Source: Haloplanus aerogenes (lineage in GTDB: Archaea; Halobacteriota; Halobacteria; Halobacteriales; Haloferacaceae). From it: a stretch of 64,000 nucleotides of DNA. Below the pieces are notes generated by a model. The model did no database searches. It was not told where the DNA came from and saw nothing but the letters and a program-made list of their open reading frames with translations. Where the stretch lies: assembly GCF_003856835.1 (NCBI RefSeq), contig NZ_CP034145.1, forward strand, positions 1,054,001 through 1,118,000, given 5' to 3'. The position numbers and the translations under genes are program-made. Numbering within the stretch: the first letter of the stretch is position 1; each line of letters starts with the position of its first letter. Positions 7,179 to 26,251 of the stretch are shown here, in pieces.

Positions 7179-7342
7179 GTGCGGCGACTGGACGCCTCGT
7201 CGAGCGTCAGGTCGACGTTCGGACGATGGCGAGCATCGGCGGGTGGTCCGCCGACTCCGCAATCGAGCCGTCTCTCGCGGAGCCGACGGAGGGGAGGCAA
7301 TGCGACCGTAGATTCAATCACTGCGGTCCCCCGCCGTAGACG

Positions 7343-8216: not shown

Positions 8217-11200
8217 TGGTCGACAGAGACTGGTTCGACGATCTCTCCGACGACTTCGAGGAGTCCGTTCGTATCGATCGAAACGAGCGCGATCACCGTG
8301 AACGGGCGATTCAGTCGTACCATATGACAGCCGACTCTCGGCGGTTCATCCAGGATTTTGTCGACCGGATGCTCGACCGAGCAGACGATATGCGGACTGG
8401 CTCTAACTACTGGCTATACGGCTACTACGGGAGTGGGAAGAGCCACCTGCTGACGGTCCTCGACGGGCTACTAGATACAGATTGGCTTGAGGGAAAGCAG
8501 GATACGGTCTGGTCCGACCTAGCTGGGGATACTCGTGACGAGACGTTGGACCAGTTGCGTGACCACTGGCGGGAGATCCACGAGGAATACTACGTCATCC
8601 CGATCTCGGTCAATCTGCTAAAGTACCAAGGGCAGAAGCAACGGAGCTTCAGCGAGATCGTCCTCAGACACGCACATCGGGATCCCGACCTGACCGGCGT
8701 CAGCGATGACATCTCGAGAGGGTTGTCTTCACAGCTCGATGTCGCCTACTTTGAGAAATGGTTCCGTACGACCGAGGCATGGCCCGAACGTCAGGACCGT
8801 GCCGAAGCAGTGCTCGAGGGGACGACAGGCTCGTCCCGTGGATACGATTGGGAGACGGATGGGCTTTGGAAGGATATCCAGCAGTACGGCGCACTGGCAG
8901 ATGTCGTTCTCCCTCGGCTCTTCGAGGACGTCAATGGGACGATCGATGGCTATGCTGACTTGAAGCCGTCGGCTATCGACGCCGAGGAGACGGTGAGTAG
9001 GCTCGAAAAGCTCCGGGCTGAGAGAGAAAAGGAGCATAACCAACCAGTGAAACTCGTATTGCTGCTCGACGAAGTGAGCCTATTCATTGGGACTGACTAC
9101 GGACGTTTGACTGAACTCCAGTCCCTCGCCGAAAAGGTCGACGAGATTGCGGACGATGATATCCAGTTGGTTGTAACCGCCCAAGCAAACATCGAAGACA
9201 CGCAACCGGGGTTTGCCGCACACGGGGCAGACTTCTCCATTCTCAAGGACCGCTTCCCACACCGATACCAGCTTCCGAGCAAACACGTCGGTGATATCGC
9301 AAAGCGCCGTCTCTTCGAGAAATCCGAATCCGGGGAGAGGGCAGTTCGTGATATACTCGAGGAGGCGTCGGTGAAACCGGCCGAATCACTAGTCTACAAC
9401 GACATCAAACAGAACACGAAACCGCCACTCGACAGCATCGACGAAGCGACACTCGTCGAGTTCTACCCGTTCTTACCCTATCACGCACCGATCTTCCTCG
9501 AGATTTTGTTCAACCTCCGGCAGGAGGCGAGTGACCCGGCGAAGTCTATCTTCTCTGGAACCGCTCGTGCGATACTCGCACTGATGCACAACCTTCTGCA
9601 GTCGTGGATCGAGGAAGACGAACCGGATCACGTCATCTCTCTCGTCGATCTCTACGAGCAGATCGAGCCGGAACTCCGAGAGATACTCACGCAGGATATG
9701 CGGGTCATCGAGGGCACTCGGAGTGGGGGGGACGACGACGAGGTTCTTGTAGAGAACGAGGCTGTCGACGAACTCGATGCGAGCCGCGGAATCGCTGATG
9801 AGGTTCGAGACGGTGAGTTGGAACCGTTCGATCTCAAGGTGGCGAAGGCCGTGTTACTGCTGCAGCACGTCCACGACATCGTTCCACTCGACGAGGGGAA
9901 CATCGCTGTCTCCGTGATGTCGGACCTCAATGGACGTTCCTGGATCAGTACGCAAAACCGAGTCGAGGAGTCGCTCGACCGACTCCAGAAGTTCATCCGG
10001 CCAAACGAAGACGAGAGCGGTGCGCGTTACCGGTTCGCCACCCAGGAAGAGCGTCTCATCTACGACGAGGCGGAAGACAACGAGCGCAACCCCGACTGGG
10101 ATGCCGTACTGGACACGCTGGACGAGCATCTCTGGGGCCGCATCACCCAGGATCTCTCGCTCCCGGATTCGGTACCATACGGTGATTCCGGCGAGGAATA
10201 CCCCGTCACGTATGGGTTCGGTATCGACGGAACCGAGTTCGAGACGACTGTCGATGCGGAGGGAGGGCTCGACGTATCTATCGAGATTCGAGGAGTTCGC
10301 CCAGATGCAACCGCGGACAATGGTGATGGAGAGACGCTGTACTGGTCGATCGATACTGATGGGCTGGACGATCTTCGAAAACACCTGGTGCGGTGGTGGG
10401 CGCTCCGGGACGCGATCTCGACCCACACGACGCCACCTGCCGTCGAACGAGACCTCTCCCGACGAGCCAGCACCGTTCGGAGCAAGCTCGTAAGCGCGAT
10501 GGGGGGTGGCTCGTACACGGTGAAGGACCGAACGGACATCGGCGGACTCTCGAAAGCGGTACAGACCGCCGTCGATCTCGGTTATCCCGACGACTTCCAC
10601 CCGATGATGCTGCAGGTGACAGACGACCGCCTGCAGGAGTTAGCAGAACTCTCGCCCGACGACCCACTCCCGGCGTGGGCGCACACGATACAGGTGCCGT
10701 CGTCGGACCCGTCTGCCAGTCAGGGCAAGAAGACGATCCAGAGCAACGTGATGGCGCTGACGGGCAGGCAGCTGAAAGATCGCGACGACGGGCTCAACCT
10801 GAACACGGTACTTGACGGAATCGTCTCGAAGAAGCCGTTCTACGACGAGACGCGACCGGCGCTCTGTGCGATCATCTGGGGGTTCTGCCGAGAAGGACGC
10901 CTGGTTCCCGTCGACGAAGACGGGAACACGCTTGAGAATGAAGCCGTCCTCGACCAGGACACCCTCTCGACGACGAGGCTCAAGCTACTCCCACGCGAGC
11001 CGATCGGGAACCTCCTCGAAGATGGTGGCTTCAAAGAAACGACGGAAACGGTAGCAGACGGACTCATCAACCTCCAGGAAGCGAACCAACGGTTACGGTC
11101 GTCACTCACCGGGTTGCGAGAGGACGTTCAGTTGGTCGTCGCTACCGACGTTCACTCAGATGCCGTCTCCGGGTTACTCGACTCGTTTATCGAAGCCCTG

Positions 11201-11992
11201 TCCGACCGTATCGACGCCACGTCCGACCGATTAACCGTGGTTCGGTCACAGGGCGATGGACTCGGAGCGGCAATCGAGCAGACAAACGAAGCGCAGGAGT
11301 GGTTCGACGAAGTTAGGGACGTCTGGAATCGGCGACTCGAGTCACTCTACCGGTTCGATGCACAGCTTACCGCGGCGGATGCTCGATTCGAATGGATCGA
11401 CGAGGATGTACAGTCGTCCGCCGCCTCTCAGCGCGAAGCTCTCGAGTCCTTCCAGGGTGACTGGTGGACGACTGACGGCTGGAAAGCACTCGTAGGAACG
11501 ACGACGACCGGACTCGACGAGGGGATTCAGGAGCTGTGGGATATCTACGTCGCTGCACAGGGCATTCCCGACCTCGTCGGACGTGTCGCAGAGCATCCGT
11601 GGGTGATTCCCGCCACAGAATTGCCCGCAGGAGTGCAGAGAGCGTTCGAGCGGACGTACATCACGCCGTACCGAGAGCTTCGACAGTGGTACGAAACGAT
11701 CGACGAGGCGATGTCGTCGCTCTCGGCAGATGACGAGGACACCCTCGTTTCAGCGGCGGACAACTTCGCTGGTGCGGAACCACTTGCTGAGGCAATAGAT
11801 CACGACGTGGAAGAACTCGACTCTCGACTCGACCGACTTACCGAAATCGTTGATGACCGGACGCCTGACGACGTCGACCAGATCGGTATGCTCCCTGACG
11901 ACCGTCAGACGATACAGAAACGACTCGAACGGCTCGTCGAAGAACGAGACTTGGACATCGAAACTACGGACTCGGGGGTGATCGTCCGATGA
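8216..11992 (+). CDS. brxC: BrxC/PglY-type P-loop ATPase, first copy
   Basis: A 1258-residue P-loop NTPase. Walker A is GYYGSGKSHLL at residues 69-79 and Walker B is LVLLLDEVSLFIG with Asp285 and Glu286; an arginine-rich region follows (TAQANIEDTQ, KDRFPHRYQLP), as in BrxC/PglY. The C-terminal half is a long acidic helical region with likely coiled coils around the final 200 residues. BrxC is an essential ATPase of BREX and is thought to act with the methylase and PglZ; it resembles Orc/Cdc6-like AAA+ ATPases in outline. The start at 8216 overlaps the brxA stop (TGATG), and the stop overlaps the brxB start by four bases. A second copy lies after brxB; the two are distant paralogues that keep Walker A at the same distance from the start. 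Confidence 0.88.
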   Translation: MVDRDWFDDLSDDFEESVRIDRNERDHRERAIQSYHMTADSRRFIQDFVDRMLDRADDMRTGSNYWLYGYYGSGKSHLLTVLDGLLDTDWLEGKQDTVWSDLAGDTRDETLDQLRDHWREIHEEYYVIPISVNLLKYQGQKQRSFSEIVLRHAHRDPDLTGVSDDISRGLSSQLDVAYFEKWFRTTEAWPERQDRAEAVLEGTTGSSRGYDWETDGLWKDIQQYGALADVVLPRLFEDVNGTIDGYADLKPSAIDAEETVSRLEKLRAEREKEHNQPVKLVLLLDEVSLFIGTDYGRLTELQSLAEKVDEIADDDIQLVVTAQANIEDTQPGFAAHGADFSILKDRFPHRYQLPSKHVGDIAKRRLFEKSESGERAVRDILEEASVKPAESLVYNDIKQNTKPPLDSIDEATLVEFYPFLPYHAPIFLEILFNLRQEASDPAKSIFSGTARAILALMHNLLQSWIEEDEPDHVISLVDLYEQIEPELREILTQDMRVIEGTRSGGDDDEVLVENEAVDELDASRGIADEVRDGELEPFDLKVAKAVLLLQHVHDIVPLDEGNIAVSVMSDLNGRSWISTQNRVEESLDRLQKFIRPNEDESGARYRFATQEERLIYDEAEDNERNPDWDAVLDTLDEHLWGRITQDLSLPDSVPYGDSGEEYPVTYGFGIDGTEFETTVDAEGGLDVSIEIRGVRPDATADNGDGETLYWSIDTDGLDDLRKHLVRWWALRDAISTHTTPPAVERDLSRRASTVRSKLVSAMGGGSYTVKDRTDIGGLSKAVQTAVDLGYPDDFHPMMLQVTDDRLQELAELSPDDPLPAWAHTIQVPSSDPSASQGKKTIQSNVMALTGRQLKDRDDGLNLNTVLDGIVSKKPFYDETRPALCAIIWGFCREGRLVPVDEDGNTLENEAVLDQDTLSTTRLKLLPREPIGNLLEDGGFKETTETVADGLINLQEANQRLRSSLTGLREDVQLVVATDVHSDAVSGLLDSFIEALSDRIDATSDRLTVVRSQGDGLGAAIEQTNEAQEWFDEVRDVWNRRLESLYRFDAQLTAADARFEWIDEDVQSSAASQREALESFQGDWWTTDGWKALVGTTTTGLDEGIQELWDIYVAAQGIPDLVGRVAEHPWVIPATELPAGVQRAFERTYITPYRELRQWYETIDEAMSSLSADDEDTLVSAADNFAGAEPLAEAIDHDVEELDSRLDRLTEIVDDRTPDDVDQIGMLPDDRQTIQKRLERLVEERDLDIETTDSGVIVR

Positions 11993-12579
11993 CGACCTCC
12001 CCGTATCGAGCGTTCAAAGAGAAACTCTGCACGTTCGCAAAAGGTCAGGCGGGTATCCGTAATCCGTTCGTTATTGCGGCTGTCGACCCCGCGATCGAAC
12101 ATCGAACTGCGAACCGACTCGATGCATGGGCGATCGGGACTGACGAGTTCCCAATCATCGATGAGGGCGTCTCCGTCCAACCGATCTGGCTCGACGAGCT
12201 GCTCCCACAGACCAAAGTGTACAATCTGTGCGTCGCGCTCGGAAGCGAGACGAGCCCGGAACGAATCGAGGGGACGATGCAGGACCGCCTCGCCGAAGAA
12301 CTCGTTCAGGAGATGAGGCAGAACGAGATCGACGGGGAACAGCTGGAGCAGCAAAGCCACGTCGTCTTGCTCCTCAATCTTGGTAGCCTCTACCCGTTTA
12401 CACGTGCTTCCGAGCTCCTCGACGAACTCGATCGTTGGAACGTCAGATCGACCATCGGTATTCCGTTCCCGGGAGACGTCGTCGGTGGGAAGCTGAGCTT
12501 CTTCGGCGGCGATTCACGACACTACTATCCAGCGCACCAGATCGACGGGCAGATTCGGGAGGTGCATCTCCAACAATGA
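11989..12579 (+). CDS. brxB: BrxB (DUF1788) BREX protein
   Basis: A 196-residue product, the usual length for DUF1788. The C-terminal half is strongly family-like: LLLNLGSLYPFTRASELLDEL, IGIPFPGDVVGGKLSFFGGD and YYPAHQIDGQIREVHLQQ. BrxB is found in nearly all BREX types; its biochemical role is not settled. It starts within the ATGA overlap with the first brxC and ends within an ATGA overlap with the second, so the three genes are translationally coupled. Confidence 0.93.
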   Translation: MTTSPYRAFKEKLCTFAKGQAGIRNPFVIAAVDPAIEHRTANRLDAWAIGTDEFPIIDEGVSVQPIWLDELLPQTKVYNLCVALGSETSPERIEGTMQDRLAEELVQEMRQNEIDGEQLEQQSHVVLLLNLGSLYPFTRASELLDELDRWNVRSTIGIPFPGDVVGGKLSFFGGDSRHYYPAHQIDGQIREVHLQQ

Positions 12580-15500
12580 GTCTCAAAGGGCTATTCCGCA
12601 GCGATCCAACCCGCCAACTCGAGGAGGTCCAGAAGGTCAACGCTCGCGAGCGAGCGGAGACCGACGTTGCAGAGTTCCACGAAACGGAGAGTGCCAAGCG
12701 TGTACTCACCGAACTCGGAGACATCATCGAAACGCATCCCGGAGAGGCTGCTCGGTTCCTCTACCTCCACGCGACGTTCGGATCGGGGAAGACTCACCTG
12801 CTGAAACTGATCGGCCTCGTCGCCGACAGTGAGTCCGAGTTCGCGCATCTGGGGGACACGTTGGCGGAGCAGTGGCCCGGATTCGACAACCTGGCGCACT
12901 CGATCGACGCGTCACACGTCGACCGGCTCAAGCCGGTGTTCCTGAACCTCCTCGATCGCGACGCCTCGAAGGAGCCGCCGCTCCCGTTCCTCATCTTCGA
13001 GGCAATCGGTCGCGAGCTCGGCTATCCGACCGACCCGAACTGGCTGTTGGAGTGGGCCTGGACCGTCGATATGGAGTACGACGGAGTCTGGGAGACCATC
13101 ACGTCGGGCGAGCGGGGCCAAGAGTTCGACGACGTGCTCGAAGAGCGTGCATCCCTGCGAAAGTGGCTCTACGAGACGCTCCCATCGATGTCGGAGACGA
13201 CGGGAACGGACCTCGACAGTCGGGACGGCGTGAAAGCGTCCATCGAACGAGCGGAGGACGAAGTGGAGCCCGAGTCGTTCGACCCAGCGGAACTGGTCGA
13301 CCGAGTCGAGACGATTACTGACTCACTGAACGAGGACGGACCACACAGCGAGCTCTTACTGGGCCTCGACGAGGTGGCGCTGTTCGTCGGCGACAGTCGG
13401 CATCGCTATCGTGAGTTCGAGGAGACGATGGAAGCGCTCCAGCACGGGCCGAATCCGGTCGTCGTCACGACTGGACAGTACTCGCTGCCTGCGACACGGG
13501 AAAGTCTCATCGGCGAACCCCTCGAAGACCACTGGACACATCAGCAGGTGCCGCTCGAAGGTGCTGATACGGAGATCATCGTCCGAAAGCGGTGGCTGCA
13601 GAAAGACGGGGCTGGCACCGAACGTGTCTCGTCGCTCATCTCATCGATGCCAGATCTCTCGCTGGAGACGTATGCACCAGTCGGGAGTGCCGATCCCGAC
13701 GCGGTCGAGTCCTATCCCTTCCGCGAGTACGACCTGACCCTGCTGCGAAAGGTGATGCAGGAGCTGATCACACAGGGCCGGGCCACGGATCGCGATTACA
13801 TTCAGGGTCGTGCACTCCTGGTGCTGGTGCGATCGCTGTTCACCAAGTTCGGCTGGGCGGATGCCGAGGAGGGCGAGCTGGTCACGTGGGACGAGCTGTT
13901 CGACCTCCTCGTCGAGGAGACGACCTACGTCCCACTGTGGGTCCAGGAGATGCTCGAGAACACGCTGATTCCGACGTTCGATGGGAACGAAGGCGCGTGG
14001 GAAGTTCGTGTGTCGAAGGCACTGTACCTCCTGAACCAGACGCCCGCTGTCCCAGCGACGCCGGAGAATCTGGGGCGACTGATGCTCGCTGACGTCGACG
14101 CGTCGGTCGATAGCGCAGTCGAGGAGACACAGTCTGCGCTGAACACGCTCGTCGACAAGCGCAAGGTGCTCACGGAGACCAACGACAAGGGCGACGAGGT
14201 GTACACGCTAGTCTCCGAGGAACAGGAGAGTGTCCTCAGCCGAGCGCAGACGAAGGCCGAGCAGATCTCGCCACACCAGCTCTCCGCCTGGCTCGAGACC
14301 CGACTTCGAGAGACCGACGACTTCTTCCGGAGTGACGGCACGCTTCACGACGCCGATATCGGGGACGAGCGCCTCGTCCCGCTTCGGTACGAGTACTCTA
14401 TCCTCGATCCGGTCGACCGAGCACCAAAGACCGAGTACGACGCGGTTCGAGTTCGTGTCCTTGCAGACGACCCAGAGACCGTTACGGAGCAGGTCGAGAC
14501 CTGGCAGGACGTGAACGACGGCCGAGACGGTGGTGAACACATCCTCATCTCGATCGACGTCCCGGAATCGACGCTGGACCGAATTCGGAACGTCATCGGG
14601 ATGAGTCAGGTGCTCGAGGAGGAAACGGAGAGTCACGAGGAACTAGAGCGCGAGCACCGGACGGACAAGCGACGGCTGGAATCGTCCGTCAGCGACCTGC
14701 TGGAGAACGCGTCAGTCTACACGGTTCACGACTACGAGGGAGAACGACCTACCGTCCTCGGCGAGGTCGTCGAAGCGCAGGTACAGGCGGTCTTCGGTTC
14801 GACCCGAAAAGTGCTCTCGCGCCCGCTCGTCGAGGTCGACGACGCGAAGGAGCTGGCGCAATTCTTCCGGGGCAGCGGTAGCTGGCCGCTCGCCGACGCC
14901 GACGCCGTGATGCTGGGTGTGGATACCTCGACCGCATCGATCGCGGATACCGGCTGGTGTCGGGCGTTCATCGACGAGTACGAGTCGAAGACCGCTGTGG
15001 ACGTCGAGACGTTGCTCCAGCAGACACGGACGGCGAACGGCGACTACCGGGGGACGCCACAGGAGTCGATTGCGGCGTTGCTCATCACACTGGCCACCTC
15101 GAACGAGACGGTCGCACTCAAGCAGGACACGGACTACGTGACCGATCCTGCGGCGATCGGTCGGCAGGTCCGGACGAAGGGTGGGCTCACCTCGCTCCAG
15201 GTGCGGTTTGGCGTCGACACGGTCGATCCCAAAGCGATTCGCAACGTGGTGTCGACGGTCCTCGGTGACGACCCCGAGGGCAACGACCCCGACGCGTGGG
15301 TGGCCGAACTCGGATCGTGGGTCGCCGACAACAGTATGCTCGTCAGGCGGACGTTCAAGGGTGTTTCACGGGAGTTCGACGTGTCTCTGGATGCCCTCGA
15401 AAGTGTGCTGTCACCAGCGTACAGTGGTGACGATATCACCACGGCAGAGCTGGTCACGGACGGCGTTCAGTCGGAGGCGGAGACGTTCGCGGATGCACGC

Positions 15501-16370
15501 GAACTCTTCGCCGCAGGAGACGGCGGGGAAACACTCTGGGACCAGTTCACCGCCGAGACCGAACTGCTGGAGGAGTGGTATCCCGGCGCGACGATCACCA
15601 GCCGAATGCAGACGACTGCGGAGAGCGGCTCTGTTCCGACGAAGACGACCGTGGCCTCGCGACTCGCGGATGCAACCGGTCATCGGGTCGACGAACTCTC
15701 GACGCAGTACCGTCGGGTGACTGGCGAGTCCGCCGACTCGACAGACCCGGACGAGATCTGTACGGAGCTGACCGAGTGGCTTCGCGAGAACGAGTCGACG
15801 GTCGACACGCTGCTCGACGATGCCACGGCTACGTTCGGTGGTGTGTCCTTCGAGGAGCTGGAGTCGGTTTTCGAAGTCGCATGGACCGATCGGCTGATCG
15901 GAGAGCCCGAACTCGTCGACCCGGTGGTCACACAGCAGGCCACGGCGTACGAGCAGGCCCGAGAGATACTTCGGGGCGACCCGAGCCCGTGGGCGCAGTT
16001 AGAAGCCAGAGCGGAGACGCTCCGTGCCGACCATCCAGAATCGCCGACGACGAAGGCCATCGACTCGACGCTGGGTGCAGCACGGCCGGTCTCACTCGAG
16101 GAAGTTCGACGACTCCTCGCCATGCCGGTTATCGGTGGGGACGACATCTGGACGGAACTCCAACGTGTCGCCGAAGAGCTCCGGCAGGAGCTTCCGAACG
16201 CCGACGTCACTGACGACGTGACGGGGGTAGTCGACGCGGACGACCGGCCGACCGACGAACGAGCGACGGAACTTCTGGACGAGTCCGAGAAACTGCTGGC
16301 CCGAATCCGCGAGGTCAGAGCGGCACTGGACGACGTCGACGACGGCGATATCGTATTGATCGAAGAGTAG
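12576..16370 (+). CDS. brxC: BrxC/PglY-type P-loop ATPase, second copy
   Basis: A 1264-residue P-loop ATPase. Walker A ATFGSGKTHLL lies at residues 66-76 (Lys72) and Walker B is LLLGLDEVALFVG with Asp265 and Glu266. It starts at the ATG at 12576, overlapping brxB; the open frame to 12435 is only an extension into brxB. The rest is long, acidic and mainly helical, with repeated charged helices after residue 600. It shares layout with the first copy but little sequence, so the duplication is old and the two may form a hetero-oligomer or have separate tasks; that is inference. Two BrxC/PglY copies are a mark of type 5 BREX. The end of the gene is followed by a 76-base gap before pglX. Confidence 0.88.
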   Translation: MSLKGLFRSDPTRQLEEVQKVNARERAETDVAEFHETESAKRVLTELGDIIETHPGEAARFLYLHATFGSGKTHLLKLIGLVADSESEFAHLGDTLAEQWPGFDNLAHSIDASHVDRLKPVFLNLLDRDASKEPPLPFLIFEAIGRELGYPTDPNWLLEWAWTVDMEYDGVWETITSGERGQEFDDVLEERASLRKWLYETLPSMSETTGTDLDSRDGVKASIERAEDEVEPESFDPAELVDRVETITDSLNEDGPHSELLLGLDEVALFVGDSRHRYREFEETMEALQHGPNPVVVTTGQYSLPATRESLIGEPLEDHWTHQQVPLEGADTEIIVRKRWLQKDGAGTERVSSLISSMPDLSLETYAPVGSADPDAVESYPFREYDLTLLRKVMQELITQGRATDRDYIQGRALLVLVRSLFTKFGWADAEEGELVTWDELFDLLVEETTYVPLWVQEMLENTLIPTFDGNEGAWEVRVSKALYLLNQTPAVPATPENLGRLMLADVDASVDSAVEETQSALNTLVDKRKVLTETNDKGDEVYTLVSEEQESVLSRAQTKAEQISPHQLSAWLETRLRETDDFFRSDGTLHDADIGDERLVPLRYEYSILDPVDRAPKTEYDAVRVRVLADDPETVTEQVETWQDVNDGRDGGEHILISIDVPESTLDRIRNVIGMSQVLEEETESHEELEREHRTDKRRLESSVSDLLENASVYTVHDYEGERPTVLGEVVEAQVQAVFGSTRKVLSRPLVEVDDAKELAQFFRGSGSWPLADADAVMLGVDTSTASIADTGWCRAFIDEYESKTAVDVETLLQQTRTANGDYRGTPQESIAALLITLATSNETVALKQDTDYVTDPAAIGRQVRTKGGLTSLQVRFGVDTVDPKAIRNVVSTVLGDDPEGNDPDAWVAELGSWVADNSMLVRRTFKGVSREFDVSLDALESVLSPAYSGDDITTAELVTDGVQSEAETFADARELFAAGDGGETLWDQFTAETELLEEWYPGATITSRMQTTAESGSVPTKTTVASRLADATGHRVDELSTQYRRVTGESADSTDPDEICTELTEWLRENESTVDTLLDDATATFGGVSFEELESVFEVAWTDRLIGEPELVDPVVTQQATAYEQAREILRGDPSPWAQLEARAETLRADHPESPTTKAIDSTLGAARPVSLEEVRRLLAMPVIGGDDIWTELQRVAEELRQELPNADVTDDVTGVVDADDRPTDERATELLDESEKLLARIREVRAALDDVDDGDIVLIEE

Positions 16371-16446
16371 CTATCAGGAGACGAAACCCGTCGGCAACAT
16401 TAAAGACGCTCCTGTCAGTCGGTGTTAGCATACTGGATTACGTTCG

Positions 16447-19400
16447 ATGGCAGGCGATTCACTCTCTCGACGGAAGGCACAACTGGACAAGGCCGAACGT
16501 GAACATCTCGAAGATGTCGTCGAAGCTCTCCGCGAGCGCGTCGAGGACAACGTCCGATATCAACTGACACAGAAGGGACTGGACGACGAGCCGGAGAATC
16601 CGGACGAGTTGGACGACGATATCCAGCACCTCGTCGAGGCGATCGACCTCGAAGCCGTCGACGGTCACACGTGGGACGAGGCGGTCGAGCAGTACGTCAC
16701 GGGTGTCGGGTACACCATCGTCAACCGTCTCGCCGCGCTGCGCTGTATGGAGGTGCGTGACTTCGTCGACGAGGAGGTCACCGTCTTCAAAGAGAACGGC
16801 CTGACGCCTGCCGCCGAGACGCTCGTCCACGAGAAGTTCTTGCTGGAGGACGAGGCGATTCTGGAAGCGTACCACAACGCCTGTGAGAGACTGGCCGACG
16901 AGATCGAGATCCTGTTCGACCCAGAGTCGGCGTACAGCCAACTCGATCCCGACGACGACACGTTCGAAGCACTCTGTCGGATGCTCGACGAGGTGCCTGA
17001 CGAAGTATGGCGTGCAGACGACGTGCTGGGGTGGGTCTACGAGTACTACAACACCAAACTACTCGACGACCTTCGACGGAAGGGTGACAGAGTTGGCCTC
17101 GATCCCGAGGACGTTCCACCGGCGAACCAGTTCTACACGCCGCACTGGGTCGTGCGGATGCTCACCGACAACTCGCTCGGGAAGCTCTACCTCGAACACA
17201 CCGGCGAGTTGCAGGACGTCGTCGAAGCGCAGGAAGCGTTCTCCCCGGACGAGCGCAAGAACCGACCACTCTCTCCCGACGAGTCACCCGATATCGCCGA
17301 TTTCTGCACCTATCTCGTTCCCTCCGAGGAGGAGGGCGAACCGACCGACTTCGACCACCCCGACGAACTGCGCGTCATCGACCCCGCCTGTGGGAGTGGC
17401 CACTTCCTGCTGTATGCCTTCGACGTGCTGGAGCGCATCTGGCGGGCCGAGACGGACCGCCCCGAGGCGGAGATTCCGCGGCAGATTCTCCAGCACAATC
17501 TCTACGGCGTCGACCTGGATATGCGGGCCTGCCAGCTCGCGGCCTTCAATCTGTATCTGAAGGGCCGGACCCGAGCCGAGGCGGAGGGTGCGGACGGGTT
17601 CGACATGCCCGAGGTCGGCATCGTCTGTGCGGACGCGAAGGTGGCCGAGATCGACGGCGTCGAGGCAGTGTTCGACGAGGTGGCTGGCGACGATCCGCAG
17701 GTCGAGAACGCGCTCCGGCGGATTCTCGACGCGTTCGAGGAGGTTCACGGTCTCGGGAGTCTGCTCGACGTGCGCGGGACGCTCGGTGATCTGTTCGAGG
17801 ACGACAGCGATGTCGGGGGCACGCAACTCACGCTGGGCGACGACCCGCGGGAGAGCCACACGCTGGGGCAGGTGCTGCACAGTCTGCGCGAGGCCGTGGA
17901 CGAACACCGGGAGTCGGATTCGTTTCTGGCGCAGGATCTGCGGAGCTTCGTGCGATTGCTGGATATTCTGGCCCAGGACTACGACGTGGCGTTGATGAAT
18001 CCGCCGTATGGCTCAAATCTCAGAATGCCTGAACAGGTTCAAGAATACACAAAATCCAAATTTGACTACCCGTCGGAATTTTATATCAATTTTTTTGAAG
18101 TCTGTGATCAGGTTGCCAAACCTAGTGGTCGAATCGGAATGCTCGTTCCTCGATCGTTCATGTTCAAGTCGAGTTTCAGGCAATTCCGAGAGGACTTCAT
18201 AGGGGAATACGGAGAATTCGACTTCCTAGCGGAGTTCGGAATTGGAATACTAGATAATGCAACGGTACGAACCGTTGGAACGGTCGTAAGATCGTCCGAG
18301 AAGGGCGCTAGTAAAGGTCGATTCATCCGACTACACGATATCGATGCCGGTAAGAAGGAAGGTATCTATTCGAAAGTCCTTAGTGAAGAGACAGACGGTG
18401 TGAAGCGGTTCTACGAAGTGCATCTGGCCGAGTTCAAGCGAATCCCCGGATCTCCACTAAGCTACTACATCCCTCATGAGATCCGTCAGTATCATCAGTC
18501 AGATGTGAAGATAGATTCATCTCATGGAGAACTTGATGCTGATTCGCTCGCTTATGCAAGGCAGGGATTGACTACTGCGAATGATGACCGATTTCTTCGC
18601 GATCACTGGGAAGTGACTGATTCTTTGTTCCACCCGATTGCGACAGGAGGATCTAACGCTTGGATTCTTCCGAGTGTGACAGAGAAGGTCGCTTGGGGCG
18701 AGAAAGGAGAGCAAATAAAACGGTCTCCCGGTTCATTCCGAACCCGAAACGAGGATCATTACGGAAAGCCGGGACTCACTTGGACATACATAAAGTCCAC
18801 TGGACGTAGATTCGGATACTTCCCTAAGAACGGAGTATATAGTAATACCGGGTTCATGCTGGTCCCGAGAGAGAATAAGTCTCTGTGGAAGATTTTGGCA
18901 GTTCTTAATTCAGACTTCTATCATGAGATTTTCCTATCTCTCAGTACTGAACGAAACTGGGACGCGGGAATCGTAGGGAGCGCACCATGGATTGACGCTA
19001 CATACTCCATCGACTTGCTTGAGGAACTGGTACAAGAACAGTATGAGTGCGTAGTATCTCTCCGAAGCAGGGACCCAAAGAGTCCTTACTACATGAGCCC
19101 CAGCCTCATTTCTGGTGAGTGTGATTCCAGTTTCTACTACGATCACGATCATATCAATCTCCTCCCTGATTGGGTAGATGTCCGCTTAGATTCGGGAATT
19201 AAAACAGCATCTATTGCAACGACTGCTCGACAAGAAGAAGTTAGAAAGAGAAAACTACAGCAGCGGTTGGAAGAAATATCTGAAAGAATAGACAGCCTTC
19301 TGTACGATGAGCTGGATATATCCGAAAATGTTCAGGAGCAAATACGTCAAGAGATCTTCCTCCGAACTGCCGAAAACCCTGACGACCGGAAGGTACCTGA

Positions 19401-20766
19401 TCCCGAATCGGTTCCCAAAGTTCCAGACAATATCGGTGAGCAAGTCAGAGACCTCGTTCATCATTTCGCGATGGAAGCTGTCCGCAAGGAGGCCGACGGC
19501 ATCATCCCTCTCCACAGCACCAACAGCCAACTCGATATGCTCAACCGCATCATTGCGCAGTTCGAGAATGTCTACGGCGAGTACGCCGAGGACCGCCTCG
19601 TCGAGGTCGACGAAATCCTCGGCGCCCAGTCCGCCGCCGAGGAGGCCTACCCCAACCTCCGGTCGTTCGTCGAGAACGACCTGTTCGACTACCACGTGAG
19701 CCGGATGGAGAACACACCGATCCTCTGGAAGCTCACCACAGAGCGCCTCGTCTCCGACTCGGCGGGCGAGGGCTTCGCCTGCTTCGTCGACTACCACAGC
19801 CTCGATTCGGGGCTCCTGGACCGACTCGCCAATCAGTACCTCGAACCGCGGAAGGCCGAACTTCGGGAACGCCGGTCGGCGGCGAACCGCCGCCGGAGCG
19901 ACGAATCCCTCTCGACGAGTGAGCAGGCCGAAGCCGCCGAGCAGTACGAGCGCTGTGCGAGCGGACTCAACCAGATCAGCGTCTTCGAGGACGTGCTTCA
20001 GGACCTGGGTCGCACCGACGCGCGCGACTTCGACGACGAGGATCGACAACTCGTCGAGGAACTCGCTCCGAAGGTCGCCACCTTCCGCGAGGAGACCCGC
20101 GAGCGCGTGGAGACGCTGGCGGAACTGCGGGAGCGCAACAGCGAGGAGTGGTTTCAGGACACCTTCTCGGACAACTTCTGGAACGCCGTCGACGAGTGGC
20201 GCGAGGAGTGGCTCGACGCCCTCGACGAACTCGAACGCGCGTGCGAGGCGTACGCCAAGCCCGCCGACGAGTCCGTCGAAGCACATCTGGCCGATCTGTT
20301 CGACTACTTCAACTGGCGGCTCAAGGGGTCCGACCACTACTCCAGCACCGGTATCCTGTTCATGACCTACTACTTCGAGCGCGAAGGGGCCGACCTCCTC
20401 GACGACGACGGGCAACCGTTCGAGACGCTGACCGACGACGAACGCCTGCTTGCCTCGCTCGCGACCGGTCTCGACGACCCCTCGATTGTCGACGCGGAGT
20501 TCCTCGAAGCGATGGCCGACGACGAGCGCGTCGAGCAAGTCGACGATCTCCCGCCACTGGAGGAGTTCAAGGCGTTGGCTGCGGAGATCGACGACCGCTG
20601 CCAGACCATCGACGAGCGCATTCCCTCGGATTGGACTGACCGCGCCCTCTCCGAGATAACGACCGAAGGGTACCAGCCGAACCACAAGCACGGTGTCGAA
20701 ATCAATATCACACCGCTCGCACGGGCAGAAATCGTCCCGAAGACGGTGGAAGACGACGTTCTCTGA
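16447..20766 (+). CDS. pglX: PglX-like BREX DNA adenine methyltransferase
   Basis: A 1439-residue N6-adenine methyltransferase of the gamma-like class. The SAM-binding motif I is DPACGSGHFLLYA starting at Asp312, and catalytic motif IV is NPPY at 518-521. The N-terminal 300 residues are helical, as in BREX PglX, and the region after NPPY (residues about 522-1010) is the target-recognition part, followed by a long helical C terminus with several coiled-coil-like segments. It methylates a short asymmetric site on one strand so that host DNA is spared; the recognition sequence cannot be read from the gene. The stretch 18006-19480 is clearly AT-richer and uses rarer codons than the rest of the gene. 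There are no frameshifts, stops or inteins. Confidence 0.92.
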   Translation: MAGDSLSRRKAQLDKAEREHLEDVVEALRERVEDNVRYQLTQKGLDDEPENPDELDDDIQHLVEAIDLEAVDGHTWDEAVEQYVTGVGYTIVNRLAALRCMEVRDFVDEEVTVFKENGLTPAAETLVHEKFLLEDEAILEAYHNACERLADEIEILFDPESAYSQLDPDDDTFEALCRMLDEVPDEVWRADDVLGWVYEYYNTKLLDDLRRKGDRVGLDPEDVPPANQFYTPHWVVRMLTDNSLGKLYLEHTGELQDVVEAQEAFSPDERKNRPLSPDESPDIADFCTYLVPSEEEGEPTDFDHPDELRVIDPACGSGHFLLYAFDVLERIWRAETDRPEAEIPRQILQHNLYGVDLDMRACQLAAFNLYLKGRTRAEAEGADGFDMPEVGIVCADAKVAEIDGVEAVFDEVAGDDPQVENALRRILDAFEEVHGLGSLLDVRGTLGDLFEDDSDVGGTQLTLGDDPRESHTLGQVLHSLREAVDEHRESDSFLAQDLRSFVRLLDILAQDYDVALMNPPYGSNLRMPEQVQEYTKSKFDYPSEFYINFFEVCDQVAKPSGRIGMLVPRSFMFKSSFRQFREDFIGEYGEFDFLAEFGIGILDNATVRTVGTVVRSSEKGASKGRFIRLHDIDAGKKEGIYSKVLSEETDGVKRFYEVHLAEFKRIPGSPLSYYIPHEIRQYHQSDVKIDSSHGELDADSLAYARQGLTTANDDRFLRDHWEVTDSLFHPIATGGSNAWILPSVTEKVAWGEKGEQIKRSPGSFRTRNEDHYGKPGLTWTYIKSTGRRFGYFPKNGVYSNTGFMLVPRENKSLWKILAVLNSDFYHEIFLSLSTERNWDAGIVGSAPWIDATYSIDLLEELVQEQYECVVSLRSRDPKSPYYMSPSLISGECDSSFYYDHDHINLLPDWVDVRLDSGIKTASIATTARQEEVRKRKLQQRLEEISERIDSLLYDELDISENVQEQIRQEIFLRTAENPDDRKVPDPESVPKVPDNIGEQVRDLVHHFAMEAVRKEADGIIPLHSTNSQLDMLNRIIAQFENVYGEYAEDRLVEVDEILGAQSAAEEAYPNLRSFVENDLFDYHVSRMENTPILWKLTTERLVSDSAGEGFACFVDYHSLDSGLLDRLANQYLEPRKAELRERRSAANRRRSDESLSTSEQAEAAEQYERCASGLNQISVFEDVLQDLGRTDARDFDDEDRQLVEELAPKVATFREETRERVETLAELRERNSEEWFQDTFSDNFWNAVDEWREEWLDALDELERACEAYAKPADESVEAHLADLFDYFNWRLKGSDHYSSTGILFMTYYFEREGADLLDDDGQPFETLTDDERLLASLATGLDDPSIVDAEFLEAMADDERVEQVDDLPPLEEFKALAAEIDDRCQTIDERIPSDWTDRALSEITTEGYQPNHKHGVEINITPLARAEIVPKTVEDDVL
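18006..19480 (+). other. Low-GC mosaic block in pglX (target-recognition region)
   Basis: Immediately after the NPPY codons the sequence shifts from GC-rich haloarchaeal codons to AT-rich ones (TTTTTT, TATATC, AAATCC, AGA/AGG arginines, ATA isoleucines), and it shifts back near 19480 (ATGGAAGCTGTCCGC onward). The block covers about 490 residues. It looks like a swapped target-recognition segment, joined at a conserved motif; the boundaries are visual estimates. Confidence 0.7.
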
Positions 20767-20768
20767 TC

Positions 20769-22919
20769 ATGCCAGCAACCAAGACTCTCCCACAGTGCGC
20801 CCACGACGCCATCGAGAGCGCAATCGACGACGCGGCCGACGAGGACCCCGTCATCCTCTGGTGGGACGACGGCGGCTTCCTCCGAGACATCGTCGAAGGC
20901 GCGAGTACCGAACTCGGCTGTGCGTTCCGTGCGGCCGAGCAGACCCCGTTAGAACTCCGTGGGGACGCCCCACGCGACCGAACCGTCTGGTACGTCTCCC
21001 AGCCCAGCAGCGACGACGTGGACTGGTTCAAGGACGTCGAACACACCGGTGGGGTGGTCGAGCAGCATATCGGCAAGCTCGCTGCACGCTGCTTCGAGAA
21101 CGACCCACTCCAGGCGGCGACGATCCGCACCGCCTACGAGGACGCCGAGGACCGTGAAAAGGTCGCCCAGACGCTCTACGAGGAACTCGACGGCGAGGGT
21201 GGACTCCCATCGCTCCAGGGCCTCCAGACGAAGATCGTCCTCGATGGTCACGACGATCCCGTGCAGTTCGTCCTCGAACACGGCACGCGGAACCTCCCGG
21301 AGGGTGACGATCTGCTACAGATCCGTGACCTGCTGGTCGACGAGGGCGTCATGGCCGTCGAGGGCGAGTCCGACGCTCGCACCATCGTCGAACACACACG
21401 CCGCTGGGCGGTCGCCGAGTGGCTCGTCGACGAAGGACTCGACACGTCCCTGCTCCCGCAGGCGTACCAGCCCGACCCGAACGCTGGATTCGGAATCTCC
21501 AGACCCGAACTCCGGTCGGTGTTGAGCAAGACCGAACGGAAAGCGGCGCTGGCGAACGTCTATCTCGACCCGAATCAGCGCTTCTGGCACGACGTCCTCC
21601 GCACCTACGAGGATCCGTGGGAACTCGTCGACTGCCCCGTCGACGCGTCGCTCGAACACCGGCTCTGGGACGAGTGGACCCAGTCGTTCGACGGCGGCGA
21701 CTACGAGACGTGCGTCACCAACGCGAAGCAGCGTCACGAACGGCTCGAATCGACGTACGGTGACGTCCCGTGGACGCACGTCTGGGAGCAGGCGATCGAC
21801 GTGGCGACGCTCGCGAACGAGCTCCAGACCTGGGAAGAGCGCGGCGACACGAACGACGTCGTCGACCTCTACGGCGACGTCGACGACGGGACCTGGCAGA
21901 TCGACAACGCGGTGTTCAACCTCGTCGTCTCGGGCGCCCCCGAGAAGCAACTCCCCGAAGAGCATCCAGCGACGGTCACGCTCGATGACCTCCGGACCTC
22001 GCTGGTGGAGTCGAAGTACCTCGAGTATCTCACCGATCTCGGCGACCTCGTCGTCGACCAGATCGACGCCGGATCGCCGTTCGTCGGCGAGAACCACGCC
22101 CACCAGTTCTTCGCCGAGGAGCAGGAACACCTCCAGAGCGGCCAGAGCGTCGCGCTGTTCATCGTCGACGCGTTGCGGTTCGACCTCGCACACGAACTCG
22201 CGGAGTCAATCCGGCGCGAGATTCCTCGGCTCGAAGTCGAGGAGAGCACCTGGGTGGGCACGCTCCCGTCCGACACCGAGTTCGGGAAGGCTGCGCTCAC
22301 GCCCGGCAGCAAGTTCAGCTTCAACATCGACTTCGAGGACGGAGAGTTGATCCCCGAACGCAATGGAAAGAAGATCACCAACTACCGTCGGCAGACGCTC
22401 CTCGAGAACGACGGCTGGAGCTACATTATGAAAGACGAAGACGACGAGGTGGGCTGGAGCAACACCCGCGTCGCCTACTACTGGAACGATATCGACGAGA
22501 CCGGCGAGAAGGAGCTGACGAATTTCGAGGAGCTGTTCAGCGACCGGATCGACGCCATCTCTCGCATCATCTGTGAGAAGCTGCGGAAGGGCGAGTGGGA
22601 CCGTGCGTACATCCTCTCCGACCACGGCTTCGTCTCGCTCCCGAGGCACGTCGACATCGACGACCTCCACCCGCCGGACGGAGCGCAGAAAGTGACCCGT
22701 CGATGGGTCGCAGGGAAGGATCTCGACGACGATGCACCAGGGGTCTTACTCGACGAGGACACCCATCTGGGTTACCTCGACGACGATGCCAGGGTCAGTA
22801 TCCTCGCCGATCCGATCCAGCGATTCCGCAATCAGGGCCTTCCTGACGCACGGTTCTACCACGGTGGCGTCCTCCCGCAGGAGTTCGTGCTGAACTTCGT
22901 CACGATCACGCAGGAGTAA
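20769..22919 (+). CDS. pglZ: PglZ alkaline-phosphatase-superfamily BREX protein
   Basis: A 716-residue product. The core motif IVDALRFDLA holds the metal-site Asp467 and Asp472, followed by STWVGTLPSDTEFG and, later, ILSDHGF with Asp618 and His619; together they form the metal-binding site of PglZ. The N-terminal domain of about 350 residues is helical, as in other PglZ proteins, and the C terminus ends RFYHGGVLPQEFVLNFVTI. PglZ is the defining BREX component and carries a phosphatase or nuclease-like fold; its reaction in type 5 is not shown. It starts two bases after pglX and ends six bases before the helicase gene, so one transcript is likely. Confidence 0.93.
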   Translation: MPATKTLPQCAHDAIESAIDDAADEDPVILWWDDGGFLRDIVEGASTELGCAFRAAEQTPLELRGDAPRDRTVWYVSQPSSDDVDWFKDVEHTGGVVEQHIGKLAARCFENDPLQAATIRTAYEDAEDREKVAQTLYEELDGEGGLPSLQGLQTKIVLDGHDDPVQFVLEHGTRNLPEGDDLLQIRDLLVDEGVMAVEGESDARTIVEHTRRWAVAEWLVDEGLDTSLLPQAYQPDPNAGFGISRPELRSVLSKTERKAALANVYLDPNQRFWHDVLRTYEDPWELVDCPVDASLEHRLWDEWTQSFDGGDYETCVTNAKQRHERLESTYGDVPWTHVWEQAIDVATLANELQTWEERGDTNDVVDLYGDVDDGTWQIDNAVFNLVVSGAPEKQLPEEHPATVTLDDLRTSLVESKYLEYLTDLGDLVVDQIDAGSPFVGENHAHQFFAEEQEHLQSGQSVALFIVDALRFDLAHELAESIRREIPRLEVEESTWVGTLPSDTEFGKAALTPGSKFSFNIDFEDGELIPERNGKKITNYRRQTLLENDGWSYIMKDEDDEVGWSNTRVAYYWNDIDETGEKELTNFEELFSDRIDAISRIICEKLRKGEWDRAYILSDHGFVSLPRHVDIDDLHPPDGAQKVTRRWVAGKDLDDDAPGVLLDEDTHLGYLDDDARVSILADPIQRFRNQGLPDARFYHGGVLPQEFVLNFVTITQE

Positions 22920-22925
22920 CCACCT

Positions 22926-25835
22926 ATGAACGACCTCGCCCCCGGAGCCACGATTCTCCTCAACGACAACCCCGCCGAGGTCATCAAGACGTACTCCGTC
23001 GGCAACCTCGAGTACCTGCGGGCCTACGTCGAGGACGTCGGCGTCAAGACCGTCTGTATCGACGACGTGGAGATAGAGCGGAAGCAGGACCAACTCGGTG
23101 CGCTCGAACCGACGACAGCAACCCAGCTGCATCCTGACCACGAGTCCGTCTCTGCAGAGTGGTTCGATCTCCGGTCACAGGCACTCCAGCTCCAGATCGC
23201 CCACGAGCAGGGACAACTGCTCTCCATCTCGAATTCACTGGTCCGCCTCGAACCGTACCAACTCGCCTGCGTCAACTGGGTGATGCAGAAGCTCCGACAG
23301 CGAGCGCTCATCGCCGACGACGTCGGGCTGGGCAAAACCATCGAGGCAGGGCTCGTTCTCAAAGAACTCACCGCACGCAACCGAGCCGATCGCGTCCTGT
23401 TCGTCGTGCCCGCACACCTCCAGAAGAAGTGGATTCGCGACATGGACCGCTTCTTCGACATCGACCTCACTCCCGCTGATCGGCAATGGGTGGAGGGCGA
23501 ACGCCGCCGTCTCGGCGAGGAAGCCAACATCTGGGATCAGGACCACCAGCAGCTGGTCACGAGCATGGCGTTCCTTCGACAGGAAGAGTTCCGCGAGGAA
23601 CTCGACGACGCGTTCTGGGACGTTGTGGTCGTCGACGAGGCACACAAGGCGGCCAAGCGTGGCGAGTCTCCGAGCAAGACGTCGAAGATGGTCGAGCGCG
23701 TCGCCGACAACTCCGACTCGCTCCTCCTGCTGAGTGCGACGCCACACGACGGCAAGGGCGAGGCGTTCCGCTCGCTCGTCGAGTACATCGACCCCTTCCT
23801 CGTCGCCGAGGATCAGGACCTCTCGAAGGAGGCGGTCGACCGGGTGATGATGCGCCGTGGGAAACAGACCATCTACGACGACGACGGCGAGCGGATCTTC
23901 CCGAATCGGGAGGTCGGGACCATCCCGGTCGAGATGACCCACGAAGAGCGCCAGTTCTACCGTGCGGTCACGGACTACGTCAAGCACGTCTACAACCGCT
24001 CTGAACAGCTCAACGAGCCTGCCGTGGGCTTCGCGATGGCGCTGATGCAGAAGCGTCTCGTCAGCAGTATCGGAGCGATCAAGGCGACGCTCAGCCGCCG
24101 ACTCGCGAATCTCGTCGATCAACAGTCTTCGTCGACGTCTCTCTCCGAGGAGGCCTCGGCCTATCTCGAGGGAGAGGACCTCGACGAGCAGGATCAGCAG
24201 AAGGCCGAGGAAGAGCTCGCAGGGCTCACGATCACCGAGAGCGACGCCCAACTCGAAGAGGAGATCGAGACGCTCAGGGACCTCGTCTCGCTCGCAGAGG
24301 GCATCCCTGTCGATTCGAAGGCCCAGAAGGTCCGACGGTACATCCAGCAATTGCTCGAAGAACAGCCCAACGAAAAGGTGCTGCTGTTCACGGAGTACCG
24401 CGATACGCTCGACTACATCCTCGAACTCGTGAAGGACGAGCCGTGGGCCGACGAGATCCTCGTCATCCACGGCGGGGTCGACAAGGAAGACCGCGCTCGC
24501 ATCGAGGACGAGTTCAACCACGGGCAGTCCCGTCTGCTCTTCGCGACCGACGCAGCCAGCGAGGGGATCGACCTCCAGCACAGCTGCCACATCATGGTCA
24601 ACTACGAACTGCCGTGGAACCCGAACCGCCTCGAACAGCGCATCGGTCGCCTCCACCGCTACGGCCAGGAGAAGGAGGTCAAAGTGTGGAACTTCTCGTT
24701 CGAGGACACCCGCGAGAGCGAGGTGTTCGAGCTGCTCCAGGAGAAGGTCGAGACCATCCGCGGCCAACTGGGGAACACTGCCGACGTGCTGGGGATGCTC
24801 GACGACATCAACGTCGATTCGCTCATCATGGAGTCCATCCGGAACGACGAGCCAGCGAGTGCAACCAAGGAGGAACTCGAAGAGCTAATCGACGAGCGAC
24901 AGCAGACGCTCGCGGAGTGGTACGAACGGAGTCTCATCGACACCAGCACGTTCGACGAGGAGAGCCGCCGGAAGATTCAGGAGGTGATGGATCAGTCCGC
25001 GGACGTCTATGGGAGTGAAGCCGACATCCGGCAGTTCTTCGAGCTGGGTATCTCCGCGCTCGGTGGGGACGTCGAAAAGGTCGGAAACAACCTCTTCCGC
25101 GCTGAGTTGCCCGAGTCGCTTCGACGCTCGCGGGACGGTGAGCTATACGGACCGTTCACCTTCAACCGCGAGTTCGCGATGGACCACGACGGTATCGAGT
25201 ATATCTCCCCCGATGCAGACCTAGTCCAAGAACTGATGCAGCGGGTACTCGATAGCGAGCAGGGTGCGGTGGGTCTCAAGCTGCTCCCGTTCGTCGACGA
25301 GCCGGGAATCACCTACAACTACCGCATCAGATTCGAGGACGGGACAGGGGAAGTCATTCGAGAGGAGATACTCCCCGTATTCGTCGATGCGGCGCATCGT
25401 GACCCTCAGCAGCGCCTCGGCCAACGAATCATCGAGGGAGACACGATCAAAGGCTCTCCGGATGGGGACCGTGTACGTACGCTCCTCGAACACCGGGGCG
25501 AGATGCGTTCGTCAGCCGACCGATACGTGAGTCAGCGTGTCGAATCACGACGCGACAAACTCCGAGAGCGTCGTAGAGAGGAGACGCAACAAGAACTCGA
25601 CGATCTCGAGACCTACGCGGAAGCCGAACGCGAACGGATCGAGACGTTCATCGCGGATTACGAGCGGAAAGCAGATGCAGGGTCCGACATGGATATCGCG
25701 ATCCGGCGACAGCGGGATCGGCTCTCGAAGCTGGAGGAGCGGATCAAGAAACGTCGACGGGAACTACAGCGAAAAGCGCAGGTCATCTCGTTGGCACCCG
25801 AAGTCGAGAACATCTGTCTCACGATCCCAATCTAA
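22926..25835 (+). CDS. brxHII: BrxHII-type SNF2-like helicase
   Basis: A 969-residue superfamily 2 helicase. Motif I is ADDVGLGKT with Lys137, the DEAH box is at 237-240, motif III is LLLSATPHDGKG, and the C-terminal helicase domain has LLFTEYRDTLDYILEL, VIHGGVDKEDR, ATDAASEGIDLQ and RIGRLHRYGQ (about 572-581). The last 130 residues are highly charged coiled coil. This is the helicase subtype that marks type 5 BREX; DISARM DrmD shares much of this core, but no other DISARM gene is present. It probably remodels or unwinds DNA using ATP. It is the last gene of the operon. An Arg-rich open frame overlaps its end in another frame (25537-26049) and is not a gene. Confidence 0.9.
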   Translation: MNDLAPGATILLNDNPAEVIKTYSVGNLEYLRAYVEDVGVKTVCIDDVEIERKQDQLGALEPTTATQLHPDHESVSAEWFDLRSQALQLQIAHEQGQLLSISNSLVRLEPYQLACVNWVMQKLRQRALIADDVGLGKTIEAGLVLKELTARNRADRVLFVVPAHLQKKWIRDMDRFFDIDLTPADRQWVEGERRRLGEEANIWDQDHQQLVTSMAFLRQEEFREELDDAFWDVVVVDEAHKAAKRGESPSKTSKMVERVADNSDSLLLLSATPHDGKGEAFRSLVEYIDPFLVAEDQDLSKEAVDRVMMRRGKQTIYDDDGERIFPNREVGTIPVEMTHEERQFYRAVTDYVKHVYNRSEQLNEPAVGFAMALMQKRLVSSIGAIKATLSRRLANLVDQQSSSTSLSEEASAYLEGEDLDEQDQQKAEEELAGLTITESDAQLEEEIETLRDLVSLAEGIPVDSKAQKVRRYIQQLLEEQPNEKVLLFTEYRDTLDYILELVKDEPWADEILVIHGGVDKEDRARIEDEFNHGQSRLLFATDAASEGIDLQHSCHIMVNYELPWNPNRLEQRIGRLHRYGQEKEVKVWNFSFEDTRESEVFELLQEKVETIRGQLGNTADVLGMLDDINVDSLIMESIRNDEPASATKEELEELIDERQQTLAEWYERSLIDTSTFDEESRRKIQEVMDQSADVYGSEADIRQFFELGISALGGDVEKVGNNLFRAELPESLRRSRDGELYGPFTFNREFAMDHDGIEYISPDADLVQELMQRVLDSEQGAVGLKLLPFVDEPGITYNYRIRFEDGTGEVIREEILPVFVDAAHRDPQQRLGQRIIEGDTIKGSPDGDRVRTLLEHRGEMRSSADRYVSQRVESRRDKLRERRREETQQELDDLETYAEAERERIETFIADYERKADAGSDMDIAIRRQRDRLSKLEERIKKRRRELQRKAQVISLAPEVENICLTIPI

Positions 25836-26150: not shown

Positions 26151-26179
26151 CCGCTCCTCACGTTCGTTCGTCGCAGGAT

Positions 26180-26251
26180 AGTCCCGGGCGGATTCGAACC
26201 GCCGTCCTGGGCTCCAAAGGCCCAGATGATTGGCCGCTACACCACGGGACT
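26180..26251 (-). tRNA. tRNA-Gln (anticodon UUG)
   Basis: A 72-base cloverleaf on the minus strand. The acceptor arms AGTCCCG and CGGGACT pair fully. The anticodon arm TGGGC/GCCCA encloses the 7-base loop CTTTGGA with anticodon TTG. The T arm carries GGTTCGAATCC. No CCA is encoded, as is usual in haloarchaea, and no intron is present. Its 3' end is duplicated 100 bases away, so the gene was probably the insertion site of an element. Confidence 0.95.

What the first reader, a model, noticed from the sequence alone, without database searches (positions are those of the whole stretch)
18006..19480. AT-rich mosaic block in pglX looks like a swapped target-recognition segment
Base composition and codon choice change sharply right after the NPPY motif and revert about 490 codons later. 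This is a sign that specificity was exchanged by recombination at a conserved motif, as in type I restriction HsdS.
Basis: seen in the sequence. Interest (0 to 1): 0.65.

Follow-up and report, generated by a model that had tools for sequence, protein, structure and literature searches.

The report
Swapped DNA-recognition block in BREX methyltransferase
In salt-loving archaea the part of a virus-defence enzyme that reads the DNA target sequence is exchanged between strains as one unit, while the rest of the gene stays nearly the same, and this window holds one such exchanged unit.

Summary
Nothing comparable exists in the other six genes of this BREX-5 operon. Swapping is supported by tests that do not use composition. 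Across 82 haloarchaeal PglX-5 genes, 63 of 70 pairs with near-identical flanks (N>=85%, C>=75% nt) have blocks below 70%. Synonymous sites in the block are near chance identity while the flanks are not. Trees of block and flank contradict each other, whereas the two halves of the block agree. The left edge sits at the catalytic NPPY (median codon 522). The block is larger than a TRD: it spans the NPPY-to-spacer DNA-contact surface of BrxX. The block is AT-rich in most relatives (58 of 82), so low GC marks the allele pool, not one recent import here. HsdS genes show the same low GC3 in 26 of 26 operons. No donor closer than 58% aa was found, and the methylation motif is untested. Verdict: HsdS-like specificity exchange in a single-chain BREX methyltransferase, a new variant of a known kind.

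The parts
7377..8216 (+). brxA (ORF opens at 7179; homology starts near 7377)
   Evidence: PADLOC BrxA, E 2e-147
8216..11992 (+). brxC/pglY copy 1
   Evidence: PADLOC BrxC PDLC02474
11989..12579 (+). brxB
   Evidence: PADLOC and Pfam BrxB
12576..16370 (+). brxC/pglY copy 2
   Evidence: PADLOC BrxC PDLC02473
16447..20766 (+). pglX, BREX-5 adenine methyltransferase and specificity factor, 1439 aa
   Evidence: NCBIfam NF033454, 2328 bits against a cut-off of 900
16447..18006 (+). conserved N-terminal part of pglX (helical bundle and SAM-binding half of the methyltransferase)
   Evidence: 80-90% nt identity among close homologues; GC3 0.81
17998..18009 (+). NPPY catalytic motif codons; left junction of the block
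   Evidence: invariant in 21 aligned sequences; identity drops at median codon 522 in 63 swapped pairs
18007..19479 (+). exchangeable AT-rich specificity block (codons 521-1011)
18430..18999 (+). approximate place of the target-recognition domain proper (BrxX 651-837)
   Evidence: alignments to BrxX and domain limits in PMC11842806 (passages)
19450..19479 (+). conserved stretch, codons 1002-1011, at the right junction
   Evidence: synonymous identity recovers at about codon 1001-1007
19480..20766 (+). conserved C-terminal part of pglX
   Evidence: GC3 0.86; 81-91% aa identity to the closest homologues
20769..22919 (+). pglZ (BREX-5 type)
   Evidence: NCBIfam NF033444, 1199 bits against a cut-off of 250
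22926..25835 (+). brxHII helicase
   Evidence: PADLOC BrxHII PDLC02504, E 0

Best explanation
The block is one allele of an exchangeable specificity unit in the BREX-5 methyltransferase PglX. It runs from just after the catalytic NPPY to the end of the helical spacer and carries the DNA-facing surface of the enzyme. Strains exchange it by ordinary homologous recombination: the crossovers lie in the conserved N- and C-terminal parts of pglX, which stay alike across the pool, so the alleles differ only between these anchors. The inferred effect is that a new block gives the whole BREX complex a new methylation and exclusion motif without disturbing catalysis or assembly. The low GC is the composition of the allele pool, probably kept low by turnover from low-GC sources faster than the host can ameliorate it. 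Shown: the block, its edges, its separate history, and its inheritance as a unit. Inferred: the change of DNA motif, the selective advantage, and the source of the low GC.
For: Third-position identity among 11 close homologues (55 pairs) drops right after NPPY. Four-fold sites in the 20-codon windows of the block lie mostly at 0.22-0.38, close to the 0.26 expected under independence; flank windows lie mostly at 0.45-0.7 (expected 0.34-0.36). Protein-level constraint cannot make synonymous sites older. Trees of 35 close homologues: block and N part share 0 well-supported splits, 12 of 13 block splits contradict the N tree, the AU test rejects each tree on the other's data, and the two halves of the block share 5 splits with 0 conflicts. 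Over 3321 pairs of 82 genes, identity of N and C parts correlates at 0.89, N and block at 0.36. 63 of 70 pairs with near-identical flanks have blocks below 70%; left edge median codon 522, 45 of 63 within 515-535; right edge median 969. Haloarcula operons L034 and L113 (pglX-A, pglZ, pglX-B, brxHII): 98.3% identical over 7.6 kb from just before pglZ, block of pglX-B 98.6%, yet block of pglX-A 53% although its codons 1-400 are almost identical. Halobacterium plasmids L131 and L133: operon about 90-92%, pglX N part 90.5%, block 58%. The block maps to BrxX about 512-992. It thus holds the TRD 651-837, the loop 587-601 that reads base 6, and the backbone contacts K515, K522, K533 and R944 (PMC11842806, passages).
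Against: No donor of this particular block was found: the closest is 58% aa in 392 genomes, so when this copy was exchanged is unknown. The flanks also recombine: N halves share 0 supported splits and 2-3 conflict, and N against C shares 1 with 2-3 in conflict. Tract ends sometimes lie outside the block, e.g. near codon 402 in L034/L088. The link between low GC and turnover is not settled: solitary pglX copies have little dip (mean 0.06 against 0.24 in GC-rich operon copies), but with only 4 tree-independent contrasts this is not significant. Only one low-GC pglX (L118) clearly shares a block with GC-rich genes. No methylome was available.
Confidence: 0.86

Rival explanations
1. The block diverged in place: the TRD evolves fast under positive or relaxed selection, without recombination.
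For: [quoted passage not shown] amino-acid conservation is lowest between codons 616 and 968.
Against: Synonymous sites of conserved codons are also near chance identity right after NPPY. The block tree contradicts the flank trees. Near-identical operons differ only in this part.
Confidence: 0.05
2. A programmed switch: inversion or conversion from silent block cassettes or a site-specific recombinase at the locus, like phase-variable hsdS.
For: pglX phase variation is stated to be common in other BREX systems (PMC11341690, passages). Tandem pglX genes in one operon could serve as partners.
Against: The own genome holds no block copy except in a second full pglX of 44% block identity. No direct repeat and only one 77% inverted pair was found around the block. 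No recombinase was among the seven further neighbouring proteins tested; not every ORF of the window was tested.
Confidence: 0.05
3. A local compositional constraint (mutation bias, codon or structure selection) keeps this part of pglX AT-rich, unrelated to exchange. This competes only with the turnover account of the low GC, not with the exchange itself.
For: Low block GC3 is shared by 58 of 82 genes (dip over 0.1) and HsdS shows the same trend (26 of 26).
Against: Block GC3 ranges from 0.30 to 0.92, and several homologues show no dip (L046, L055, L006, L098). It would explain composition only, not contradictory trees.
Confidence: 0.2

Closest known systems
BREX type 5 PglX (NCBIfam NF033454; operon brxA-brxC-brxB-brxC-pglX-pglZ-brxHII)
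   Same: Gene content and order; family model over its cut-off.
   Different: Not different: this is a member. I found no report of block exchange in it in the papers searched.
Type I RM HsdS allelic TRD exchange and domain movement (e.g. Furuta et al., PMC3983042; search listing only)
   Same: Variable recognition part between conserved parts that act as recombination anchors; specificity changes as a unit; low GC3 in haloarchaeal HsdS as well.
   Different: Here the recognition part lies inside the methyltransferase chain, and the exchanged unit includes about half of the catalytic domain; one 490-codon unit rather than two TRDs.
E. coli BrxX and Salmonella PglX (BREX-1), MmeI (type IIL)
   Same: NPPY, hinge, TRD and spacer in the same order; sequence match over the region. 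Engineering of the TRD changes the motif (PMC11341690, PMC11842806; passages).
   Different: Those papers changed single residues by design; natural exchange of the whole block was not described in the passages read.

Membership tests
BREX type 5 | two brxC/pglY genes, brxA, brxB, pglX, pglZ and brxHII in one operon (definition recalled) | tested here: met
   window 7377-25835
BREX type 5 | PglX and PglZ over the curated BREX-5 cut-offs | tested here: met
   NF033454 2328 bits against 900, NF033444 1199 against 250
BREX type 5 | methylation-dependent virus exclusion | not testable with these tools
   no methylome or infection data
HsdS-like allelic exchange of specificity (works like) | variable recognition block between conserved anchors | tested here: met
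HsdS-like allelic exchange of specificity (works like) | history of the block independent of the flanks | tested here: met
   (trees and AU tests)
HsdS-like allelic exchange of specificity (works like) | block alleles recognise different DNA motifs | not testable with these tools
   inferred from BrxX structure only
Type I HsdS (membership) | separate S subunit with two TRDs and Methylase_S (PF01420) domains | tested here: not met
   Pfam finds Eco57I, N6_Mtase, MmeI_Mtase and a sub-threshold UPF0020 match only
Phase-variable invertible specificity locus | silent cassettes or inverted repeats and a recombinase at the locus | tested here: not met
   (window ORFs not all tested for a recombinase)

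The most novel reading that the evidence does not exclude
Haloarchaeal defence systems draw their DNA-specificity parts (PglX blocks, HsdS) from a shared circulating pool of low-GC cassettes. The GC3 step between cassette and host gene then works as a clock of specificity turnover: genes that still exchange show a sharp step, and solitary pglX copies that stopped exchanging have lost it. The solitary pglX of this genome gives the same BREX core a second, fixed specificity from 1.6 Mb away.
Probability: 0.3. Interest if true: 0.7.

Novelty: new variant of a known kind. Interest (0 to 1): 0.52.

Why it matters
It shows how a single-chain BREX methyltransferase can change target while keeping catalysis and complex assembly: the whole DNA-contact surface moves as one unit with a junction at the catalytic motif. 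It gives natural chimaeras with a clear prediction of motif changes, a design rule for retargeting BREX, and a composition signal by which exchanged specificity parts can be found in raw sequence.

Tried and rejected
AlphaFold2 of codons 290-1050 with 21 sequences gave mean pLDDT 50 and was not used; the mapping to BrxX rests on sequence profiles. A free-standing copy or viral donor of the block was sought and not found: own genome and 392 order genomes, viral contigs (none), phage records (only 23-24% matches). A silent-cassette or inversion switch was rejected. In-place divergence was rejected by synonymous sites and trees. The tempting claim that solitary pglX copies lack the GC dip because they do not exchange passes a rank test (p 4e-5 among GC-rich genes) but not a tree-corrected one (4 contrasts); it is kept as a hint only. 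The solitary copies are also not in one shared place: genes beside the one in this genome have no match beside the others. The two Halanaeroarchaeum plasmids turned out 99.9% identical and gave no swap.

Full report
WHAT IS THERE. The window lies in a haloarchaeal chromosome (G000, 3.5 Mb). Positions 7377-25835 hold a complete BREX type 5 operon: brxA, brxC, brxB, brxC, pglX, pglZ, brxHII. A universal stress protein gene lies upstream; tRNA-Gln and suf genes lie downstream.

THE OBSERVATION. A likelihood scan of third codon positions finds one segment, codons 521-1011 (18007-19479), with GC3 0.46 against 0.83 outside and a log-likelihood gain of 102.9. The same scan of the six other operon genes gives gains of 5.0-14.8.

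IS IT SWAPPED? Composition alone cannot say, so relatives were collected: 22 loci from named genomes, matches in 12 genus, 170 family and 391 class genomes, and plasmid records. After dropping incomplete or broken genes, 78 full-length genes plus 4 from plasmids gave 82. Four lines of evidence agree.

(1) Synonymous sites. Among 11 close homologues (55 pairs) third-position identity is 0.72 over codons 501-520 and falls at codons 522-523. In the block, four-fold sites mostly show 0.22-0.38 identity, close to the 0.26 expected by chance, and recover from about codon 1001. Protein constraint does not act on these sites, so the block alleles are older than the flanks.

(2) Trees. For 35 close homologues the block tree has 13 well-supported splits, of which 12 conflict with the N-part tree and none is shared. 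AU tests reject each tree on the other data. The two halves of the block share 5 splits without conflict, so the block moves as a unit. The flanks are not free of recombination: N halves share no supported split and 2-3 conflict, and N against C shares one and conflicts in 2-3.

(3) Close pairs. Of 70 pairs with N part at least 85% and C part at least 75% identical, 63 have blocks below 70%. The left edge has median codon 522 (45 of 63 within 515-535), the right edge median 969 (39 of 63 within 960-1010). These pairs share genes (32 in all) and are not independent.

(4) Natural experiments. Three Haloarcula operons carry pglX-A, pglZ, pglX-B, brxHII (L034 is named Haloarcula amylolytica, the other two share its genus code). 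Between L034 and L113 the stretch from just before pglZ through pglX-B is 98.3% identical and the block of pglX-B 98.6%. In pglX-A of the same operons codons 1-400 are nearly identical, while the block is 53%. Against the third operon (L114/L087) the right edge is sharp at codon 981. In Halobacterium plasmids the operon is about 90-92% identical, the pglX N part 90.5%, the block 58% and the C part 80%.

WHAT THE BLOCK IS. Profile alignment places it on BrxX about 512-992. In E. coli BrxX (PMC11842806, passages) this holds the second half of the methyltransferase domain, the TRD (651-837), the loop 587-601 that reads the sixth base, the backbone contacts K515, K522 and K533 just behind NPPY, and R944. 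So most of the listed DNA contacts lie in the exchanged unit; K226 in the N part and R1145 and K1152 in the C part lie outside it. PglX sets BREX specificity (PMC11341690, passages). A change of motif by block exchange is therefore likely, but was not measured.

WHY AT-RICH. The block is poorer in GC3 by more than 0.1 in 58 of 82 genes. Its low GC is thus not a trace of one import here. Some homologues have none. HsdS genes of related haloarchaea have lower GC3 than their operon neighbours in 26 of 26 pairs (0.47 against 0.69, Wilcoxon p 3e-8; of 30 loci, 4 had no usable neighbour; what the neighbours encode rests on position). So low GC looks like a property of specificity DNA in this group. 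The best guess is turnover from low-GC sources. Support is partial: the low-GC pglX L118 shares its block, more than its flanks, with L116 and L099, whose blocks are intermediate in GC3. Solitary pglX copies show little dip, but this fails tree correction. A local constraint remains possible.

FOR THIS COPY. Its closest flank relatives (82-84% nt in the N part) have blocks of 50-59% nt. In the flank tree it groups with L037 (support 88); in the block tree it lies by L030, L032 and L034. No donor was found (best 58% aa), so donor and date are unknown.

NOVELTY. Exchange of recognition domains is well known for HsdS and other RM systems. In the held papers I found no report of natural exchange of the PglX block (searches; the original BREX paper is not held). 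I file it as a new variant of a known kind.

Noticed in passing
L004:5423-9751 (-) = G000:C1 about 2705423-2709751: A second, solitary full-length BREX-5 pglX (NF033454 2376 bits) 1.6 Mb away among metabolic genes, with no other BREX gene in the 20 kb read; the genome has a single pglZ. It may give the same BREX core a second specificity.
   Followed up: partly
L179 (G003), L180 (G001), L184 (G137): Reduced BREX-5 operons that keep brxA, brxC, brxB, brxC and pglZ (brxA lies beyond the stretch read in L184) but have lost pglX and brxHII (short ends remain in G003 and G137), while an intact pglX lies elsewhere in the same genome. Possibly methylation-only systems with pglX in trans.
   Followed up: partly
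genus of the window, 12 genomes: The 5 genomes with full BREX-5 pglX are the same 5 that have an open pglZ frame (one only 36% identical); a sixth has only a broken pglZ fragment.
   Followed up: yes
L030, L033, L034, L099, L102, L112, L113, L114: Tandem architecture pglX-pglZ-pglX-brxHII, with two different pglX genes in one operon.
   Followed up: partly
L129-L135 (plasmids): Extra genes sit in BREX-5 operons before and after pglX: KwaB-like, NucS-domain, TATA-binding protein, AAA ATPase.
   Followed up: no
L120:11469-13133 (-) (G239): pglX remnant that stops about 20 codons after NPPY with a transposase-like ORF directly behind (transposase type judged by eye).
   Followed up: no
L136-L165: HsdS genes of haloarchaea are lower in GC3 than their operon neighbours in 26 of 26 pairs.
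   Followed up: yes
window 26179-26251 (-): tRNA-Gln just downstream of the BREX operon, a possible integration site of the island.
   Followed up: no
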